Source of the DNA: a virus
Virus record (IMG/VR): IMGVR_UViG_3300027777_000031
Location: 1 to 64,000 of that record
Direction: 5' to 3' (one strand)
DNA: 64,000 nt
Shown here: positions 46,352-57,873 of the stretch, piece after piece
Layout: every line of letters begins with the position of its first letter
How positions within the stretch are numbered: the stretch's first letter is position 1
Notes under the pieces: generated by a model
The model's input: only the letters and a program-made list of their open reading frames with translations
Databases searched by the model: none
Told to the model about the DNA's origin: nothing
Position numbers and translations under genes: made by a program

Positions 46352-46378
46352 CAAAGATACGAAAAAAAAATTAAGCAA
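46352..46378 (-). promoter_or_regulatory. probable host-type promoter, archaemetzincin
   Basis: On the minus strand TTG (46376-46378) is followed after 16 bases by TATCTTTG (46352-46359). The -7 box is perfect; spacing is shorter than the 19 bases seen elsewhere. Confidence 0.5.
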
Positions 46379-47606
46379 CCTCTTCTATTTTAGGTAACAT
46401 TTGACCTAAAGATTCAAGATTAGGACATTGTTGTGAATCTTCACCCATTGCTTTGAAGAATTTATCATTTTGAACTAAATAATTATTTTGAGTTTCACCA
46501 ATAATAAAAACTAACGCACCGACTGCATATGGTCTTGCAATTTTTAAAAAGTCTTCAGGAAGATTAATACAACCATATGATTTGTTAAATTTAGAAGTAC
46601 CTAAATATTGTTCAACAGTTTTTATAAATGAATCCGGAATACTTTCAGATTTTGGTGATGCACTACTACCCATAGCTTTTTTAAGTTCTCGCATTGCTTT
46701 TACTCTTGGAGCTTCATTATAAAATCCGTGAATAGCGTTTGCTAAACTTTCGCCGTCTAAAGTTGTTACATTAAAGATATTATTATCACCACCAACATAA
46801 TCCTCATCAGTTTTTAACGCATTAATAGAATAAATTCCTTTAGGAAAAAATCTTGATTTATTTTTATTTATATAATCGTAAATTAATTCCTTATCATATT
46901 TTTTACCACCACCAGTTTTATCTTTATATTCTTGTGATTTCACATCATATTTAAAACCCGCAGCATTGGCATATTCGTCCCAAGACCATAATGCTTTAGC
47001 TATTGATTTAGCGTCTTGAGATTGAGCATTTAACCCATCTATCGTATATGATTTAGCAACAAAATCGCCTTTTTTGTTAAACAAATAAATGTTATTATCT
47101 CTTGTATCAATAACGAAAAAATTTCTATTACTAAATTTAGGTCGTATACCAACATATGAAATTTCACAAGCACTTCTTACAGGAACACCATTAGAAATTA
47201 ATTCTCCACCAACTTTTTGATATTGACTCATTTTTGTCAAATCAACCCCTTTAGTACTAGGTATTGAAGGACAAAAATTTTGAGATGTTTTATCATCTTT
47301 TTTAATTGGTGTTTCAGGTTTTTTAATTTGCATAGTCTTATCACCAATAACTTGTTTAATACTAGTTATTGATTTATGATTTTTAGCCTCTTTCCAATTA
47401 GGGTACTTGTCACCATATTTTGTATTTTCTTTACCTTTAAAATAATATTTACCATTTTCAAATTTATAATCATACGCATTATCGTGGTCAGTAACTATAA
47501 TTGGAGACACACCTTGTTCACTTAAATAGTGACGTTTAGTTGCACTTTCGTGAAGATTTAATATTCTATTTTTTTCTTCTTCGTTAATTATAAATAAATT
47601 TTTCAT
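46371..47606 (-). CDS. L,D-transpeptidase-like protein with conserved N-terminal leader
   Basis: The protein has 411 residues from the ATG at 47606; the longer frame upstream lies inside the next gene. Residues 1-30 form a leader (EEEKNRILNLHES at 9-21, then YLSE at 27-30) shared with other proteins nearby and ending in a predicted prohead-protease site after Glu30. The C-terminal region has KSYGCINLPEDF, the SxGCINxxxxD active-site motif of YkuD-type L,D-transpeptidases, with Cys as nucleophile. The middle contains FFVIDTRDNNIYLFNKKGDF, the typical strand start of that fold. It may modify or cut peptidoglycan on entry. Confidence 0.7.
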   Translation of the reverse strand: MKNLFIINEEEKNRILNLHESATKRHYLSEQGVSPIIVTDHDNAYDYKFENGKYYFKGKENTKYGDKYPNWKEAKNHKSITSIKQVIGDKTMQIKKPETPIKKDDKTSQNFCPSIPSTKGVDLTKMSQYQKVGGELISNGVPVRSACEISYVGIRPKFSNRNFFVIDTRDNNIYLFNKKGDFVAKSYTIDGLNAQSQDAKSIAKALWSWDEYANAAGFKYDVKSQEYKDKTGGGKKYDKELIYDYINKNKSRFFPKGIYSINALKTDEDYVGGDNNIFNVTTLDGESLANAIHGFYNEAPRVKAMRELKKAMGSSASPKSESIPDSFIKTVEQYLGTSKFNKSYGCINLPEDFLKIARPYAVGALVFIIGETQNNYLVQNDKFFKAMGEDSQQCPNLESLGQMLPKIEEVA

Positions 47607-47607
47607 A

Positions 47608-48426
47608 TTATTTCGGAGTTGTTGGGGTATAACCCTTAAATTCAGGGAATGATTTAGCTTTGAACTGTGAACCCGCAGCTGTCGGTGCTCCCGCAGTTGG
47701 TGGATTAGTTCCAGCACCCGGTTGCCCTATTAAATCATTGATATCGATTTCAGAATATCCTGAACCTCCACCAGCAGCTACACCACTATTTTCTGTACCG
47801 GTTTTTTGACCTCCGGTATTAGCACCTGTAGTTTGAGCACCTGTTGATGCACCTTGAACACCAGTTTCAGCGGTTTTCTTAATTGCTGCCGATGACGCGT
47901 CGGTAGTATTGTTGGTTGGTTGAGTTGTAGTAGTTGTTGTGGTTGCGTTTGTATCTGTTTTTGGTAAATTTTGTAATGACGATAAAATACTTGCAGATGT
48001 TTTAGGTCCATATTTACCATCCGGAGTTAATCCGGCTTGAGATTTTGTATTTAATAAAGTTTGTAATTCAACAATTGAAGGGTATTTAACCCCTATTTTA
48101 ATAGGTGTCACTGGTGGTGGTGGTGTTGTTGCTGCCGGTGGAGTAGTTCCTGCAGCTGTTGGTGGAGTAGTTCCTGCTGCTGTTGGTGGAGTAGTTCCTG
48201 TGTTAGCACCTGTAACACCACCAATTTCTACACCAGGTTTAGACCCACCAATCGTATTTAGAGATTGTTTAATAGCATCAACCACTTTTGGGTCTAAATT
48301 TCCATAATTCCCTGAGTCAATGTTTCCAGCAATAGTTTTAACATCCTGTTCAGAAATAACAATACCTCTTTTATACCCCAAAAGGTATTTCATATTTTCA
48401 ATTTCTTTTAATATATTTTTTTTCAT
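47608..48426 (-). CDS. peptidoglycan-binding-domain protein with leader
   Basis: The protein has 272 residues. Its leader, MKYLLGYKRGIVISEQ at about 12-27, ends with a possible prohead-protease site ISE (24-26). Residues about 110-155 contain VELQTLLNTKSQAGLTPDGK and YGPKTSASI, a classic PG_binding_1 domain. Flanking regions are low complexity, rich in Thr, Ala, Pro and Gly, including three tandem PPTAAGTT units. It lies one base from the transpeptidase-like gene and overlaps the next, so the three form one unit, probably virion-borne cell-wall proteins. Confidence 0.6.
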   Translation of the reverse strand: MKKNILKEIENMKYLLGYKRGIVISEQDVKTIAGNIDSGNYGNLDPKVVDAIKQSLNTIGGSKPGVEIGGVTGANTGTTPPTAAGTTPPTAAGTTPPAATTPPPPVTPIKIGVKYPSIVELQTLLNTKSQAGLTPDGKYGPKTSASILSSLQNLPKTDTNATTTTTTTQPTNNTTDASSAAIKKTAETGVQGASTGAQTTGANTGGQKTGTENSGVAAGGGSGYSEIDINDLIGQPGAGTNPPTAGAPTAAGSQFKAKSFPEFKGYTPTTPK

Positions 48427-49142
48427 TATCTTGGTCTATTTGCGTTTGCTTGTAATTGTTTTATTGCATCATTAAGTTGGTCTGAAGTCATACCAACTTG
48501 TTGTTGTGCTTGAGCGATACCTCCAGCGGGTGTTCCTGTTGTTGGAGTTGTTGTCCCAGCAGCAGCTGCTGGTGGTGTTGTAACCTCTGATTTAGGAGTA
48601 TCTTGTGGTTTACCATTTAATTTTTCATTAATTTTTTGTAACAAACCGGAATCCATAATACCTGTTTCAGGTAAACCTAAGAATTTTTGAATAGCCTTAG
48701 TATTTTCAGTTGTTTTAGCAACAATTTGTTGTTTATATTGTTGTAATTTTTTTGCCTTGTCATCAGTTGTTACCGCAGTTTTAAATTCAGGGTCATTACA
48801 AGAATATTTTTCAGATTTATTATTGGCAACAGGTTGTTTACGTTTATAACCATTATTATAATACACATAACCTTTTATTATATATGCTGTCGACCCGTCT
48901 GATAATTTAGTTGGTTTAACCCCTTGACTAGGGACACACGAATATATTCCTTCCCAATTTTTTTCTCTAGCAAGACCATCTTTCTTACCAGCACCTGCTT
49001 GAGCATTAAATCCAAGTGGATTATTTGGTATTGCTCCAAATGGTGAAGTTTGTTCATTCAAATATTGACGTTTTGTTGCACTCTCGTGAATATTTAAAAT
49101 TCTATTTTTTTCTTCTTCGTCTAAGAAATATAATTTTTTCAT
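48426..49142 (-). CDS. leader-bearing protein with PG-binding-like segment
   Basis: The protein has 238 residues. The leader EEEKNRILNIHESATKRQYL ends with LNE at 28-30, almost identical to that of the gene at 46371-47606. A central domain (GIYSCVPSQGVKPTKLSDGS) has two Cys, and IQKFLGLPETGIMDSGLLQK resembles half of a peptidoglycan-binding domain. The end is Thr/Ala/Gly rich. It starts the three-gene unit and has an ATATTTATAAATA motif upstream. A virion or injected location is inferred from the leader. Confidence 0.55.
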   Translation of the reverse strand: MKKLYFLDEEEKNRILNIHESATKRQYLNEQTSPFGAIPNNPLGFNAQAGAGKKDGLAREKNWEGIYSCVPSQGVKPTKLSDGSTAYIIKGYVYYNNGYKRKQPVANNKSEKYSCNDPEFKTAVTTDDKAKKLQQYKQQIVAKTTENTKAIQKFLGLPETGIMDSGLLQKINEKLNGKPQDTPKSEVTTPPAAAAGTTTPTTGTPAGGIAQAQQQVGMTSDQLNDAIKQLQANANRPR

Positions 49143-51496: not shown

Positions 51497-51890
51497 GGGA
51501 GCGACACGGAATTGATTATTAGTAATAGTTATTCGGGGCACGTAGTGAGATGTTCTCTATCACTTAAATCTATGGGTACAACAATTTAGACGGAAACGTT
51601 TTAAACAAAATGGCTCTAGTAGGTCTTGTACGTCAAGACGAGCTTGTGAACGTAGCGTAAGCAAACTCACATTGGGGTCGGTGGACATATAACCCAGCAA
51701 CAGGAGTCCCTACAAAGGTGTGGTACCTATCCGAAAAGGTACAAGTGGAGGATTAGTTCTCAGTAAACCAAACCACTCTAAAAATAAGGGAATTGTGAAA
51801 TTTTGGATTGTTAGCTTAAACAATATCCTAAACGTGTAGTCCTTAATAGGTAGTACAAATAAGACCGGAGTTCGAGTCTCCGCGCTTCCA
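51497..51890 (+). ncRNA. ssrA: transfer-messenger RNA (tmRNA)
   Basis: The gene gives an RNA of 394 bases that rescues stalled ribosomes with SmpB. The 5' end GGGAGCG pairs over 7 bp with CGCTTCC (51883-51889), followed by discriminator A; CCA is not encoded. The T arm is CGGAG-TTCGAGT-CTCCG. The 3' third carries the characteristic string GTGTAGTCCTTAATAGGTAG, similar to E. coli tmRNA. A tag reading frame opens at GGA (51592) after TTAGAC and ends at TAA (51658-51660), giving 22 residues ending LVNVA. The stop lies next to a helix GTGA/TCAC, as in other tmRNAs. It has its own promoter and terminator. Confidence 0.92.
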
Positions 51891-51926
51891 CTTCCACCGG
51901 AGAGTCCCGACACCTCCATCAAAAGA

Positions 51927-52441: not shown

Positions 52442-52903
52442 TTAATTTTCGTCATCATCAAACATTCCCATTTCATCACCCCAAGATTGTAAAAAATCTT
52501 GTTCTTCTTCGTGGCTAGGTTCCTCATCATCTTTAGTATATTCCCAAGCTTGAACTTCATTCTTAAATTTATTAAATGAAAAATTAATTTCGTCTAAATC
52601 AAAACCTAATTTATAATCATTAAAAACATTTTTCATATCATCTTTAATGTTATGTTTCATATATCCAACCATAACTTTGAAATACTTACGTAAATGATTT
52701 TCATTAAATGGTTCTCCAATAACTTCATCTAAAACGTGTTGGAAATGAGCGTCTATATAAAACTCCCAAGCTTTAGATAATGTTAAAACTTTTTTGTTTG
52801 AACCTAAACTATCATCTTCTTTAATCACATTTTTTTTACCTGAGTGCATCTCAAGGATTCTATTTTTCTCTTCTTGAGAAATGTTATTTAACAAATTTTT
52901 CAT
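52442..52903 (-). CDS. small acidic protein with conserved leader
   Basis: The protein has 153 residues. The leader ISQEEKNRILEMHSGKKNVI ends with IKE at 27-29, a good prohead-protease site, and the mature part begins DDSLGSNKKV. The rest is helical with a Glu/Asp-rich C-terminus (EEPSHEEEQDFLQS and FDDDEN). The leader is almost the same as that of the gene at 53479-53886. It probably is packaged in the head. The function of the mature part is unknown. An ATATATTTAT motif precedes it. Confidence 0.55.
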   Translation of the reverse strand: MKNLLNNISQEEKNRILEMHSGKKNVIKEDDSLGSNKKVLTLSKAWEFYIDAHFQHVLDEVIGEPFNENHLRKYFKVMVGYMKHNIKDDMKNVFNDYKLGFDLDEINFSFNKFKNEVQAWEYTKDDEEPSHEEEQDFLQSWGDEMGMFDDDEN

Positions 52904-52946: not shown

Positions 52947-53384
52947 TCATTTCAAGTCTCTTTTCATATCTCTATCAATGTCCCGAGATTTTATACTATC
53001 TCGTTTATCGTGGAGTTTTTTCCCTTTGGCAAGAGCAATCTCCATCTTAACTAATCCGGTGTCATTTATGAAGACACGATAAGGAATGATGGTTGTCCCG
53101 TTGATTAACTCACTCTCCAACTTATTCAGTTCTTTTCTCTTGGCTAATAGTTTTCTATCCTTAACGGTCTCGTGGAATGACCCAAACCCATAATCTGAGA
53201 TGTTCATTCCTTTAACAAATAACTCATTATTATTGAAATAACAATAACTTTCCGAGATGGAGACCTTTCCCTGACGGATGGATTTCACTTCTGAACCAAC
53301 TAGTTTGATTCCCACAATTAAAGTTTCCAAGAAGGAATATTCAAACTTGGCTTTCTTATTGACTATGTTAATTGATTTTTTCAT
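52947..53384 (-). CDS. smpB: SmpB, tmRNA-binding protein
   Basis: The protein has 145 residues from the ATG at 53384; the in-frame ATG at 53432 is not used because the promoter lies between them. SmpB marks are NKKAKFEYSFLETLIVGIKL, VGSEVKSIRQGKVSISESY, the conserved GMNISDYGFG loop, and the C-terminal ALAKGKKLHDKRDSIKSRD then RDMKRDLK. It brings tmRNA to stalled ribosomes and its tail reads the empty mRNA channel. The tmRNA gene lies 1.1 kb away. Length is normal (about 150). Confidence 0.92.
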   Translation of the reverse strand: MKKSINIVNKKAKFEYSFLETLIVGIKLVGSEVKSIRQGKVSISESYCYFNNNELFVKGMNISDYGFGSFHETVKDRKLLAKRKELNKLESELINGTTIIPYRVFINDTGLVKMEIALAKGKKLHDKRDSIKSRDIDRDMKRDLK

Positions 53385-53388
53385 ATGA

Positions 53389-53478: not shown

Positions 53479-53886
53479 CTATCTAGGTCCTAAATCATAT
53501 TCATTATCATCTTCATCTTCATCATCATTACTATCTTCAACAGGAGTCACACTTAGTATGTTAAATCTTTTAGAAAATTTAGGAATTTTTGTTACATTAA
53601 TTATAGATGAACTACTTCCAAATTCTGTTGAGTATCTTACTATCACTTTCTCATCATTACTATCTTCAACAGGATTTACACTTCGTATATTAAATCTTTT
53701 AGAAAATTTAGGAATTTCTTTTACATCAATTATAGATGAACTACTTCCAAATTCTGTTGAGTATCTTACTATTACTTCCACACTTTCATTTATTGTTTCT
53801 TTAGTAATAATACTCTTTTTATTTGAGTGCATCTCAAGTATTCTATTTTTTTCACCTTGTGATATATCATTAAATAAATTTTTCAT
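53479..53886 (-). CDS. leader-bearing protein made of two tandem 43-residue repeats
   Basis: The protein has 135 residues. The leader ISQGEKNRILEMHSNKKSII matches that of the gene at 52442 and leads to INE at 32-34, a possible prohead-protease site. The mature part is two nearly identical repeats with VIVRYSTEFGSSSSII and IPKFSKRFNI, then an acidic end (DSNDDEDEDD). The repeat has no known family; its strand-rich pattern suggests a small beta domain. It probably is an internal head protein. Confidence 0.6.
   Translation of the reverse strand: MKNLFNDISQGEKNRILEMHSNKKSIITKETINESVEVIVRYSTEFGSSSSIIDVKEIPKFSKRFNIRSVNPVEDSNDEKVIVRYSTEFGSSSSIINVTKIPKFSKRFNILSVTPVEDSNDDEDEDDNEYDLGPR
53522..53779 (-). 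repeat. tandem duplication, 129 bp x 2
   Basis: The units 53522-53650 and 53651-53779 are direct repeats, in frame (43 codons), with only a few differences. They duplicate the whole mature domain of the gene at 53479-53886, indicating a recent event. Confidence 0.85.
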
Positions 53887-53953: not shown

Positions 53954-54834
53954 GGCTTAATACGATGAGAATACTCGTCTTATTGAGAATCTTCGGAAGC
54001 ATTATTTTTTCGCTTCTTTTCCACCATCTTTTGAATGGTAATCCTCATTGCCGATTGGTTAGACCAATCACTCCTTGAGATATCATCTACTCTCTCATTA
54101 TTCAACTCTCTTCAATCTTGCGAACTGACTCCGGATTCGACTCCGTAGAGGTTTTTGGCGAGAATACATTCAGACTTGCGGTCATCCTGTGCAACGAACG
54201 GCTCGTTACTATGTAGGCAACTTGTCGACGATACCTGACAGACACTTTTGCTCTTTTCTGTTTAGTTTTTCACCATATTGAAAATAGTTAACGTGTTGTG
54301 GATGTGTCCAAGTAGAGGTCTGTCTTAGGCTTCATCATCTTTTGGACGAAGAAATACCAACCTACTCGGTAGAGTGTCCCCACTCTCATATTTTAAGAAT
54401 TCTTCAAATCAAAATCTTGGTAGATGTTTGATAAGGATAATGACAGCACCACCTGTTACTTATCTTGTCTTTCGACTTTAAGATTTCTCTCATATTGGAA
54501 CCCGCAATAATTAAGTTGGATAACCTAACTTCTTACTTGATTCCTATCACTTATTCCTGTTGGAGTTCCCCCCTCAACCGAAAGACCCACATCTCCCGGT
54601 CACCCAACCACTTTCTCTAAAGCGTCGCCCTCAATACTGAAGGTCAGATGGTATGTGACTTGTATACTCGAGTCCCATTTCTGAGACCGCAAACCTGTTA
54701 ACACAACAGATTCACTTTAGCCCGGTTTCCCGGTTTATTTAAGGATGATATACCACCCATTATCGTTTTTATAATACCTAAGTACTATATGGATAATCTA
54801 AAATGTTTAAGAACGTTTTGAGGTTTCCCTCATT
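53920..54834 (-). ncRNA. large structured noncoding RNA (about 0.9 kb)
   Basis: No credible reading frame spans this 915-base stretch, while a host-type promoter lies just upstream and a terminator at its end, both for the minus strand. The RNA would begin with the hairpin TGAGGGAAACCTCA (a GNRA-type loop). Many local hairpins are visible, such as GATTGGT/ACCAATC, CTAC/GTAG, AGAGT/ACTCT, GAAGC/GCTTC and CTGTT/AACAG. GC content is higher than in the flanks. Size, phage setting and proximity to tRNA-like genes fit the GOLLD or ROOL class of giant RNAs, but I cannot confirm the class. It is not RNase P RNA. Confidence 0.75.
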
Positions 54835-55090: not shown

Positions 55091-55127
55091 TTTTTTTATT
55101 TTTTTTATTTTTTTTATTTTTTTTTAA

Positions 55128-55246
55128 TCTGTGATAAGACCTTAAGATTTACAAATTCGTAGGTCACCCATTCTTTACTACCTAAAACTCGCACTCCCGG
55201 CAGGGATAGTCTGCTGTAATAGGTCTATCTGCTATCTTATCACAGA
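55128..55246 (-). ncRNA. candidate structured RNA closed by a 12-bp stem
   Basis: The perfect inverted repeat TCTGTGATAAGA (55128-55139) and TCTTATCACAGA (55235-55246) encloses 95 bases with further hairpins: GATAG/CTATC, CCC-TGCC-GGG and TAGGT/ACCTA. It has no T-arm consensus and no 5S rRNA match, so it is neither. It lies between the tRNA-like cluster and a small gene. It could be processed from the tRNA transcript or regulate the next gene. The strand is inferred from its neighbours. Confidence 0.5.
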
Positions 55247-55253
55247 ATAAATT

Positions 55254-55341
55254 ATGTGTGTGTACGCTCTACCATTATAGCTAAACCTTGGTCATCACGA
55301 TTACGGTTGTTGGAATCGAACCAACGACTTTACACTACACA
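55254..55341 (-). tRNA. tRNA-like RNA with permuted halves (unit 3)
   Basis: On the minus strand the 3' half comes first: GTGTA (55331-55335), variable AAGTC, T arm GTTGG-TTCGATT-CCAAC (55309-55325), AACCGTA. After an 11-base linker the 5' half follows: CAAGGTT, TA, D arm GCTATAATGGTAGAGC (55266-55281), G, TACAC. TACAC pairs with GTGTA over all five positions of the anticodon stem, and the helix continues with ACACA/TGTGT. The acceptor stem is weak (five of seven pairs). No anticodon loop with U33 can be formed as it stands. It could be a permuted tRNA gene or a tRNA-derived RNA. Confidence 0.55.
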
Positions 55342-55346
55342 TTTTG

Positions 55347-55438
55347 TGGTATCGGCAGGGTTCGAACCTACGGCACAGAGTCTTTCGTTACTCCTGCTCT
55401 ACCAAAGGAAGACGAATCCCCCACTGAGCTACAATACC
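55347..55438 (-). tRNA. tRNA-like RNA with 19-base D-loop insertion (unit 2)
   Basis: The order is normal and the acceptor stem perfect (GGTATTG / CGATACC, discriminator A). The D stem is GCTC/GAGC, but the loop has 26 bases, about 19 more than normal, between AGT and GGTA. The anticodon stem GGAGT/ACTCT holds an 8-base loop AACGAAAG without U33, so the anticodon cannot be assigned (GAA or CGA are possible). The T arm is GTAGG-TTCGAAC-CCTGC. It is 92 bases long; CCA is not encoded. Confidence 0.65.
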
Positions 55439-55449
55439 ATTATAAGTTA

Positions 55450-55524
55450 GTGGACGTATGCTCTACCATCTGAGCTACAGCTTTTAATCACCGGAGGGAT
55501 TTGAATCCTCGACACAACGTCCAC
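55450..55524 (-). tRNA. tRNA-like RNA with permuted halves (unit 1)
   Basis: On the minus strand the order is GTGGACGT (55517-55524), variable bases, T arm with ATTCAAAT loop (55494-55511), CGGTGATT, then AAAAGCTG, TA, D arm GCTCAGATGGTAGAGC (55460-55475), A, and finally ACGTCCAC (55450-55457). The 8-bp match between the ends closes what would be the anticodon stem; the acceptor ends are joined by a short loop and pair over only about four positions. The upstream promoter is only about 40 bases away, so there is no room for another 5' half. A decoding function is doubtful. Confidence 0.55.
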
Positions 55525-55562
55525 CTATATTTTCAATAATTTTAAGAACTTTATTTCTTCTA

Positions 55563-55594
55563 CAAAGATAATACTTTTATTTTAATATATCAAA
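55563..55594 (-). promoter_or_regulatory. host-type promoter of the tRNA-like cluster
   Basis: On the minus strand TTTG (55591-55594), 20 bases, TATCTTTG (55563-55570). The transcript would start near 55556, about 30 bases before unit 1. Confidence 0.7.
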
Positions 55595-57267: not shown

Positions 57268-57873
57268 TTATTGTTCTAAATGGTTCATTAATACACCACC
57301 AATAGATGTTGAATAAACCAATAAATGATTTACCGATTCTTCATTTAATTTTGTTTTTTTCTTGGTATAATCAATACCTAACATACCAATAAATCGACCT
57401 TCAATACATTTTATCGCAAAAAGATAACCTGATTTACATCCAGTATCTTCAGCAATATATTTTAACCCAAAAGTTGCTATAGTTTCATCTTTAAAGTCAG
57501 ATATTTCAATTTTATCGTGTTCTAATAATTGATTAATTGAACGGCTAAATAAATTAACAGGTATATTGTGAAAATTCCCCTGTATTGAAGATACTGATGG
57601 TGCCACAGATTCATATATAATACTGAATTTTGCCATCGATTTCCCGGTTGGGTAAAAATTACCTCCATTATGAAATTGTGCAACCCAAACTCTATCTCCT
57701 TTTAATTCTTCTTTAATATGGTCTAATTTTGTCATTACAAGTTCACTGACTTTTAACGTTTCCAACACCATATCCGGTTTTTCTTCTTTTTTCTCTAATT
57801 TATTCTTGATGAATAATAATAGAACGGGACCTAATACCCCCGTAATAAACGCTACTATTATAGATGCACTCAT
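57268..57873 (-). CDS. membrane-anchored GAF-like protein
   Basis: The protein has 201 residues. Residues 3-24 (ASIIVAFITGVLGPVLLLFI) are a transmembrane helix, followed by a charged linker and, from about 55, a GAF-like sensor domain (DRVWVAQFHNGGNFYPTGKS and CKSGYLFAIKCIEGRFIGML). The AQFHNGG motif is typical of a phage and plasmid-borne GAF-like family of unknown function. It starts the group of three genes next to the fibre genes and is one base away from the M15-like gene. Confidence 0.6.
   Translation of the reverse strand: MSASIIVAFITGVLGPVLLLFIKNKLEKKEEKPDMVLETLKVSELVMTKLDHIKEELKGDRVWVAQFHNGGNFYPTGKSMAKFSIIYESVAPSVSSIQGNFHNIPVNLFSRSINQLLEHDKIEISDFKDETIATFGLKYIAEDTGCKSGYLFAIKCIEGRFIGMLGIDYTKKKTKLNEESVNHLLVYSTSIGGVLMNHLEQ

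What the first reader, a model, noticed from the sequence alone, without database searches (positions are those of the whole stretch)
55254..55524. Two tRNA-like genes with circularly permuted halves in a phage
On the minus strand, units 55450-55524 and 55254-55341 each encode the T-arm half before the D-arm half. In both, the outer ends pair as the anticodon stem (8 bp in the first; five perfect pairs plus an extension in the second), which is hard to explain as leftover pieces of different tRNAs. A host-type promoter about 40 bases upstream leaves no space for another 5' half. Permuted tRNA genes are known from red algae, green algae and some archaea; I know of no phage example. Because the acceptor stems are weak and no U33-containing anticodon loop is evident, they may instead be tRNA-shaped decoys, for example against anticodon nucleases, or processed circular RNAs.
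Basis: partly seen in the sequence, partly recalled or inferred. Interest (0 to 1): 0.9.

Follow-up and report, generated by a model that had tools for sequence, protein, structure and literature searches.

The report
Orphan YrlA-type tRNA mimics in phage
Two small phage RNA genes whose tRNA-like halves are in swapped order are not scrambled tRNA genes but belong with a known class of tRNA look-alikes (bacterial YrlA "Y RNAs"), here unusual because the phage shows no sign of the Ro60 protein that normally holds such RNAs.

Summary
On the minus strand, 55524-55450 and 55341-55254 encode a T arm, a capped acceptor-like hairpin and then a D arm, with the outer ends paired. In relatives the outer helix of unit 1 covaries (GTGGACGT/ACGTCCAC to GTGGGTGT/ACACCCAC).

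The reading as circularly permuted tRNA genes fails. The acceptor-like arm of unit 1 is a 3-4 bp hairpin of 12-16 nt in all, too short for two 7-nt strands plus N73. There is no BHB motif and no anticodon loop. Both units match Rfam YrlA (34.6 and 25.3 bits), a tRNA mimic with this same permuted order. Tandem intact tRNAs in related phages reach 26.2 bits, so unit 1 is clear by score; unit 2 rests on its paired, conserved ends.

A pattern scan of IMG/VR found many such units; 31 of 45 carrier records encode Ro60 (TROVE). None of about 60 relatives searched does, including 308-, 318- and 322-kb records, and the conserved 5' motif of Ro60-phage units is missing. These are orphan mimics. They flank an odd cloverleaf without a normal anticodon loop, in phages that carry an Rnl1-type RNA ligase. 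Function is inferred: elbow-presenting decoy or scaffold.

The parts
55563..55594 (-). Bacteroidota-type promoter: TTTG (55594-55591), 20-nt spacer, TAnnTTTG (TATCTTTG, 55570-55563)
   Evidence: sequence; also seen upstream of unit 1 in most relatives
55449..55525 (-). Unit 1: YrlA-type permuted tRNA mimic (outer stem, T arm, capped acceptor hairpin, D arm, outer stem)
   Evidence: Rfam RF02553 34.6 bits, E 7.4e-6; covariation; 27 IMG/VR stretches
55494..55510 (-). T arm of unit 1 (GAGG-ATTCAAATC-CCTC, 4 bp)
55478..55493 (-). Capped acceptor-like hairpin of unit 1 (CGGT-GATTAAAA-GCTG); 12-16 nt in relatives
55460..55475 (-). D arm of unit 1 (GCTCAGATGGTAGAGC)
55346..55438 (-). Cloverleaf tRNA-like gene between the units, with a 6-bp hairpin inserted in the D loop and an 8-nt loop AACGAAAG at the anticodon position; no standard 7-nt anticodon loop in any of 17 variants
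   Evidence: RF00005 39 bits; helix covariation in 17 sequences; arm folds
55254..55341 (-). Unit 2: YrlA-type permuted tRNA mimic; outer stem 10 bp with one bulge; extended capped acceptor-like arm
   Evidence: RF02553 25.3 bits, E 0.0038; conserved in 8 IMG/VR stretches; weaker by score than unit 1

Best explanation
Both units encode YrlA-type tRNA mimics: RNAs in which the T arm, a hairpin-capped acceptor-like arm and the D arm follow one another in permuted order and rebuild the tRNA elbow, while the paired 5' and 3' ends take the place of the anticodon stem. They are not tRNA genes. They are probably transcribed together with a cloverleaf tRNA-like gene lying 11 nt after unit 1 and 4 nt before unit 2. 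That gene probably acts as a processing signal: cleavage by host RNase P and RNase Z at its ends would trim the 3' end of unit 1 and the 5' end of unit 2 (inferred). No Ro60 gene was found in any kin phage searched, and the conserved 5' motif of Ro60-linked units is missing, so the usual Ro60-tether role is unlikely. The mechanism I commit to is that they present a tRNA elbow without an anticodon loop and occupy a tRNA-elbow-binding protein during infection, as decoy or scaffold; candidates are the host exoribonuclease PNPase or a tRNA-targeting nuclease. Shown: anatomy, conservation, covariation of unit 1, absence of detectable Ro60. Inferred: expression, processing, binding partner and effect. 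I put about 0.85 on identity as YrlA-type mimics and about 0.4 on the decoy or scaffold role.
For: Rfam RF02553 is the only family besides tRNA to match these stretches with significance, and its consensus shows the same order: T arm, capped hairpin, D arm, outer pairing. Unit 1 scores 30-41.5 bits across kin, while tandem intact tRNA pairs in 50 phage records reach at most 26.2 bits. Covariation of the outer stem. Independent scan: 43 of 81 sites with T arm, short insert and D arm overlap no intact tRNA; 31 of 45 carrier records encode TROVE, and in 30 distinct cores the insert is a covarying 7-bp capped hairpin, so permuted units in phages are generally Y RNAs. TROVE is absent in 50 relatives and in 19 records centred on unit carriers. 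The 5' motif (UUAC, ACUAC or UUAUC type) is present in 28 of 30 Ro60-phage units and absent in both window units. Rnl1-type RNA ligase in all 6 kin records tested.
Against: Both units are below the Rfam gathering score of 69, although none of 8 pattern-found phage loci with such units (6 of them from records with TROVE over its cut-off) reaches it either. Unit 2 scores within the tandem-tRNA range and its outer stem does not vary enough to covary. A core-only model cannot separate the units from tandem tRNAs, which score up to 52.9 bits. No expression data. Most records are fragments, and a very divergent Ro60 could be missed. The decoy role has no direct evidence.
Confidence: 0.68

Rival explanations
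1. True circularly permuted tRNA genes, spliced at the paired ends, circularised and cut at the acceptor to give mature tRNAs, as in red and green algae and Thermofilum.
For: Permuted order and paired ends; the phage has an RNA ligase.
Against: The capped acceptor of unit 1 is 12-16 nt in all and cannot supply 7 + 7 + 1 nt; no BHB motif, the ends form one continuous helix; no anticodon loop; algal and archaeal permuted tRNAs depend on BHB processing (PMC3978253), and bacteria lack that endonuclease (established knowledge).
Confidence: 0.03
2. Genuine Y RNAs that bind a Ro60 supplied by the host or by an undetected part of the phage, tethering it to PNPase as in Deinococcus.
For: Same tRNA-mimic module as YrlA; other phages with permuted units mostly encode Ro60.
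Against: No TROVE in about 60 kin records, three of them above 300 kb; TROVE in only 2 of 38 Bacteroidota genomes; conserved 5' motif absent.
Confidence: 0.17
3. Chance remnants of a tandem tRNA array: the 3' half of one tRNA followed by the 5' half of the next.
For: Tight tandem tRNAs have the same arm order and score well on core models.
Against: No intact tRNA overlaps; outer stems pair and in unit 1 covary; both units are kept in order across several phages; spacing in unit 1 too short for two acceptors.
Confidence: 0.03
4. The units are cut out and sealed into stable circular RNAs by the phage's T4 Rnl1-type ligase, using the paired ends as a splint.
For: Paired termini; Rnl1-type ligase (340 aa, RNA_lig_T4_1 67.8 bits, phrog_562 E 1.7e-67) and a kinase-like protein nearby.
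Against: No processing sites known; the ligase is more simply explained by repair of cleaved tRNAs.
Confidence: 0.07

Closest known systems
YrlA RNA (Rfam RF02553; bacterial Y RNA, Salmonella structure PDB 6CU1 as cited in PMC8394870)
   Same: T arm, capped acceptor-like hairpin and D arm in this order; outer stem formed by the RNA ends next to the D and T arms; no anticodon arm in the Rfam consensus.
   Different: Below gathering score; acceptor hairpin of unit 1 shorter (3-4 bp); no Ro60 gene found; no conserved 5' CUA/UAC motif; two units in one array around a cloverleaf.
Y RNA-like units of Ro60-encoding phages (found here)
   Same: Permuted T arm, capped acceptor, D arm; paired ends.
   Different: Those have a 7-bp capped acceptor, usually about 20-30 nt between basal stem and T arm (often an anticodon-arm-like hairpin), the UUAC-type motif and a TROVE gene.
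Circularly permuted tRNA genes (Cyanidioschyzon, green algae, Thermofilum; PMC3978253)
   Same: 3' half encoded before 5' half; ends pair.
   Different: Those have BHB motifs, a full acceptor stem with intervening sequence and an anticodon; absent here.

Membership tests
YrlA / bacterial Y RNA | tRNA-mimic module in permuted order: T arm, capped acceptor-like hairpin, D arm | tested here: met
YrlA / bacterial Y RNA | 5' and 3' ends pair to a stem | tested here: met
   covariation only for unit 1
YrlA / bacterial Y RNA | Rfam gathering score 69 bits | tested here: not met
   34.6 and 25.3 bits; also not reached in 8 pattern-found phage loci with such units, 6 from records with TROVE over its cut-off
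YrlA / bacterial Y RNA | Conserved 5' motif (UUAC/ACUAC/UUAUC type) beside the basal stem | tested here: not met
   28 of 30 Ro60-phage units have it, window units do not
YrlA / bacterial Y RNA | Ro60 (TROVE) partner encoded in the same genome | tested here: not met
   0 of 50 and 0 of 19 records, against 31 of 45 for pattern-found units; most records are fragments
YrlA / bacterial Y RNA | Binds Ro60 and tethers PNPase; carries tRNA-type modifications | not testable with these tools
   needs biochemistry
Circularly permuted tRNA gene | Two full acceptor strands (7 + 7 + N73) recoverable from between the halves | tested here: not met
   12-16 nt in unit 1 variants; unit 2 has 25 nt but only a 4-bp AACC/GGTT helix with irregular pairing beyond it
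Circularly permuted tRNA gene | BHB motif at the termini | tested here: not met
   continuous 9-bp helix in unit 1, 10 bp with a 1-nt bulge in unit 2
Circularly permuted tRNA gene | Anticodon loop formed by the joined ends | tested here: not met
   no loop between the paired ends

The most novel reading that the evidence does not exclude
A Ro60-independent class of phage-encoded, permuted, anticodon-less tRNA mimics that work in an array with an anticodon-defective cloverleaf as decoys or scaffolds for a host tRNA-elbow-binding protein, alongside the phage's tRNA-repair ligase.
Probability: 0.3. Interest if true: 0.75.

Novelty: new variant of a known kind. Interest (0 to 1): 0.5.

Why it matters
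Bacterial Y RNAs are defined by Ro60. A conserved phage lineage that keeps the tRNA-mimic half and apparently drops the Ro60 half would separate the two functions and could show what the mimic does alone, for instance whether it blocks a tRNA-targeting nuclease, a role suggested but untested for YrlA (PMC7790460). The pattern scan also suggests permuted tRNA-like units are common in Ro60-encoding phages, largely below the Rfam cut-off, so annotation misses them.

Tried and rejected
blastn against annotated phages and plasmids: no match. A covariance model of T-acceptor-D cores from Ro60 phages finds both units (38.3 and 29.7 bits), but tandem tRNAs score up to 52.9, so it is not evidence. The gapless outer helix of unit 2 alone is not significant (266 of 3000 shuffles). 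Pairing of the D-loop insert with the anticodon loop of the cloverleaf: not supported, the insert forms its own hairpin instead. ARAGORN's Thr(GGT) call for the cloverleaf was rejected because that GGT lies in the D loop. RtcB partner: absent in 22 records. The primary YrlA papers (Chen 2014; Sim 2018, 2020) are not held; what I say about them rests on reviews and citing papers.

Full report
What was checked. The finding lies in an 89.9-kb IMG/VR fragment of a phage with T4-type capsid and terminase genes, a Bacteroidota-type promoter consensus and a tRNA set of about 20 genes just beyond the window. Kin records reach 308-322 kb. The best fold of unit 1 recovers all four helices; the best fold of unit 2 recovers the outer stem and T arm but not the D arm. 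Against shuffled flanks the outer helices are unlikely by chance (15 of 3000; 1 of 1500 with one bulge).

Conservation and covariation. A protein 1.7 kb upstream (57268-57873) pulled out 68 related loci, and pattern scans added more. Twelve distinct unit 1 sequences keep the outer helix at 100% pairing, with double changes at three pairs: A-U to G-C, C-G to U-A, and G-U to U-A. The changed state is shared by few lineages, so it counts as one or a few events. Unit 2 has five distinct sequences; the only double change is in its D stem (G-C to A-U). In at least six kin records (L010, L019, L117, L123, L124, L125) the order unit 1, cloverleaf, unit 2 is kept; L017 and L018 have one more RNA between unit 1 and the cloverleaf; in others unit 2 is replaced by other structured-looking RNAs.

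Why these are not permuted tRNA genes. Such genes need two acceptor strands between the halves, a bulge-helix-bulge motif at the termini and an anticodon (PMC3978253). Unit 1 has 16 nt between T stem and U8 in the window and only 12 nt (CGGATTTATCCG) in relatives, which folds as a closed hairpin. The ends form an uninterrupted helix with no loop and no BHB motif. No anticodon exists.

What they are. Rfam's YrlA model (RF02553) aligns end to end with both units (34.6 bits, E 7.4e-6; 25.3 bits, E 0.0038), and its consensus has exactly this permuted layout. Because YrlA resembles two adjacent tRNAs, I measured the false-positive level: in 50 kin records the other hits, up to 26.2 bits, coincide with pairs of intact tRNAs wherever checked. 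Unit 1 (30-41.5 bits across kin) stands above this; unit 2 does not, so its identity rests on its paired ends, its conservation and its place beside unit 1. YrlA is described as a tRNA mimic with D, T and acceptor arms on a stem formed by the RNA ends, modified by tRNA enzymes (PMC8394870), and phage YrlA and Ro60 are mentioned in the literature (PMC7765460, PMC7824862).

The Ro60 question. Of 45 records carrying such or partly overlapping sites, 31 encode a TROVE (Ro60) domain, and their inserts are covarying 7-bp capped hairpins. By contrast no TROVE was found in 50 kin records of the window phage or in 19 records centred on carriers of the units, including 308-, 318- and 322-kb ones, even at E 10. 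Only 2 of 38 Bacteroidota genomes have it, so a host-supplied Ro60 is possible but not likely. The motif that sits beside the basal stem in 28 of 30 Ro60-phage units is missing here. This is why I call the units orphan YrlA-type mimics rather than Y RNAs proper.

The cloverleaf between them. The gene at 55438-55346 keeps acceptor, D, anticodon-position and T helices with covariation in 17 sequences, but has a 5-6-bp hairpin inserted in the D loop and a non-standard anticodon loop (8 nt, often closing further to 4-6 nt). It is unlikely to decode. Tight spacing on both sides suggests it serves as a cutting signal for RNase P and RNase Z; this is inference.

How it may work. The phage carries an Rnl1-type RNA ligase and a kinase-like protein just outside the window, the kind of pair used against anticodon nucleases (established knowledge for T4). 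For Salmonella YrlA it was proposed, not shown, that the tRNA-like domain may act as a competitive inhibitor of a tRNA nuclease (PMC7790460). All three RNAs of this array present a tRNA elbow and lack a normal anticodon loop. The simplest reading is that they occupy an elbow-binding protein, as decoy or scaffold. I rate this at about 0.4, and identity as YrlA-type mimics at about 0.85.

Limits. No expression data; fragmentary records; unit 2 weak by score; E-values of RNA searches depend on the length searched; the primary YrlA papers could not be read here.

Noticed in passing
window 55124-55246 (-): Another conserved RNA directly after unit 2, closed by a 13-bp stem (TCTGTGATAAGAT...GTCTTATCACAGA; fold z -3.4). 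In relatives (L014, L015, L109) an internal hairpin is replaced by a much larger domain. No Rfam match.
   Followed up: partly
L012 (after the cloverleaf), L109, L015 (between unit 1 and the cloverleaf), L353: Interchangeable structured-looking RNAs at array positions in relatives (for example ATAAACCATAATTTGGCGGAGGATGG...GGGTTTAT), suggesting a cassette of swappable small RNAs.
   Followed up: no
L134, L157, L190 and other loci: Phages with Ro60 carry permuted tRNA-like units that often include an anticodon-arm-like hairpin between the basal stem and the T arm, i.e. a four-arm tRNA mimic opened between D arm and anticodon arm; none of 8 loci scanned reaches the Rfam YrlA cut-off.
   Followed up: partly
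window 53962-54369 (-), 51497-51893 (+), 52947-53387 (-): GOLLD RNA (298.8 bits), tmRNA (74.9 bits) and an smpB gene (Pfam 161 bits) next to the array; the phage may bring its own trans-translation pair.
   Followed up: no
record 65181-66206 and 66571-66975 (-), beyond the window: Rnl1-type RNA ligase and a small AAA_33 (polynucleotide-kinase-like) protein; the ligase is present in all 6 kin records tested.
   Followed up: partly
window 46371-47717, 48426-49142, 52442-52903, 53479-53886 (-): Several otherwise different proteins share a short N-terminal motif (EEKNRIL..H.S), possibly a targeting or packaging tag.
   Followed up: no
L157 101-374 (-): A Ro60-encoding phage record also carries a permuted tmRNA (RF04321, 110.4 bits).
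   Followed up: no
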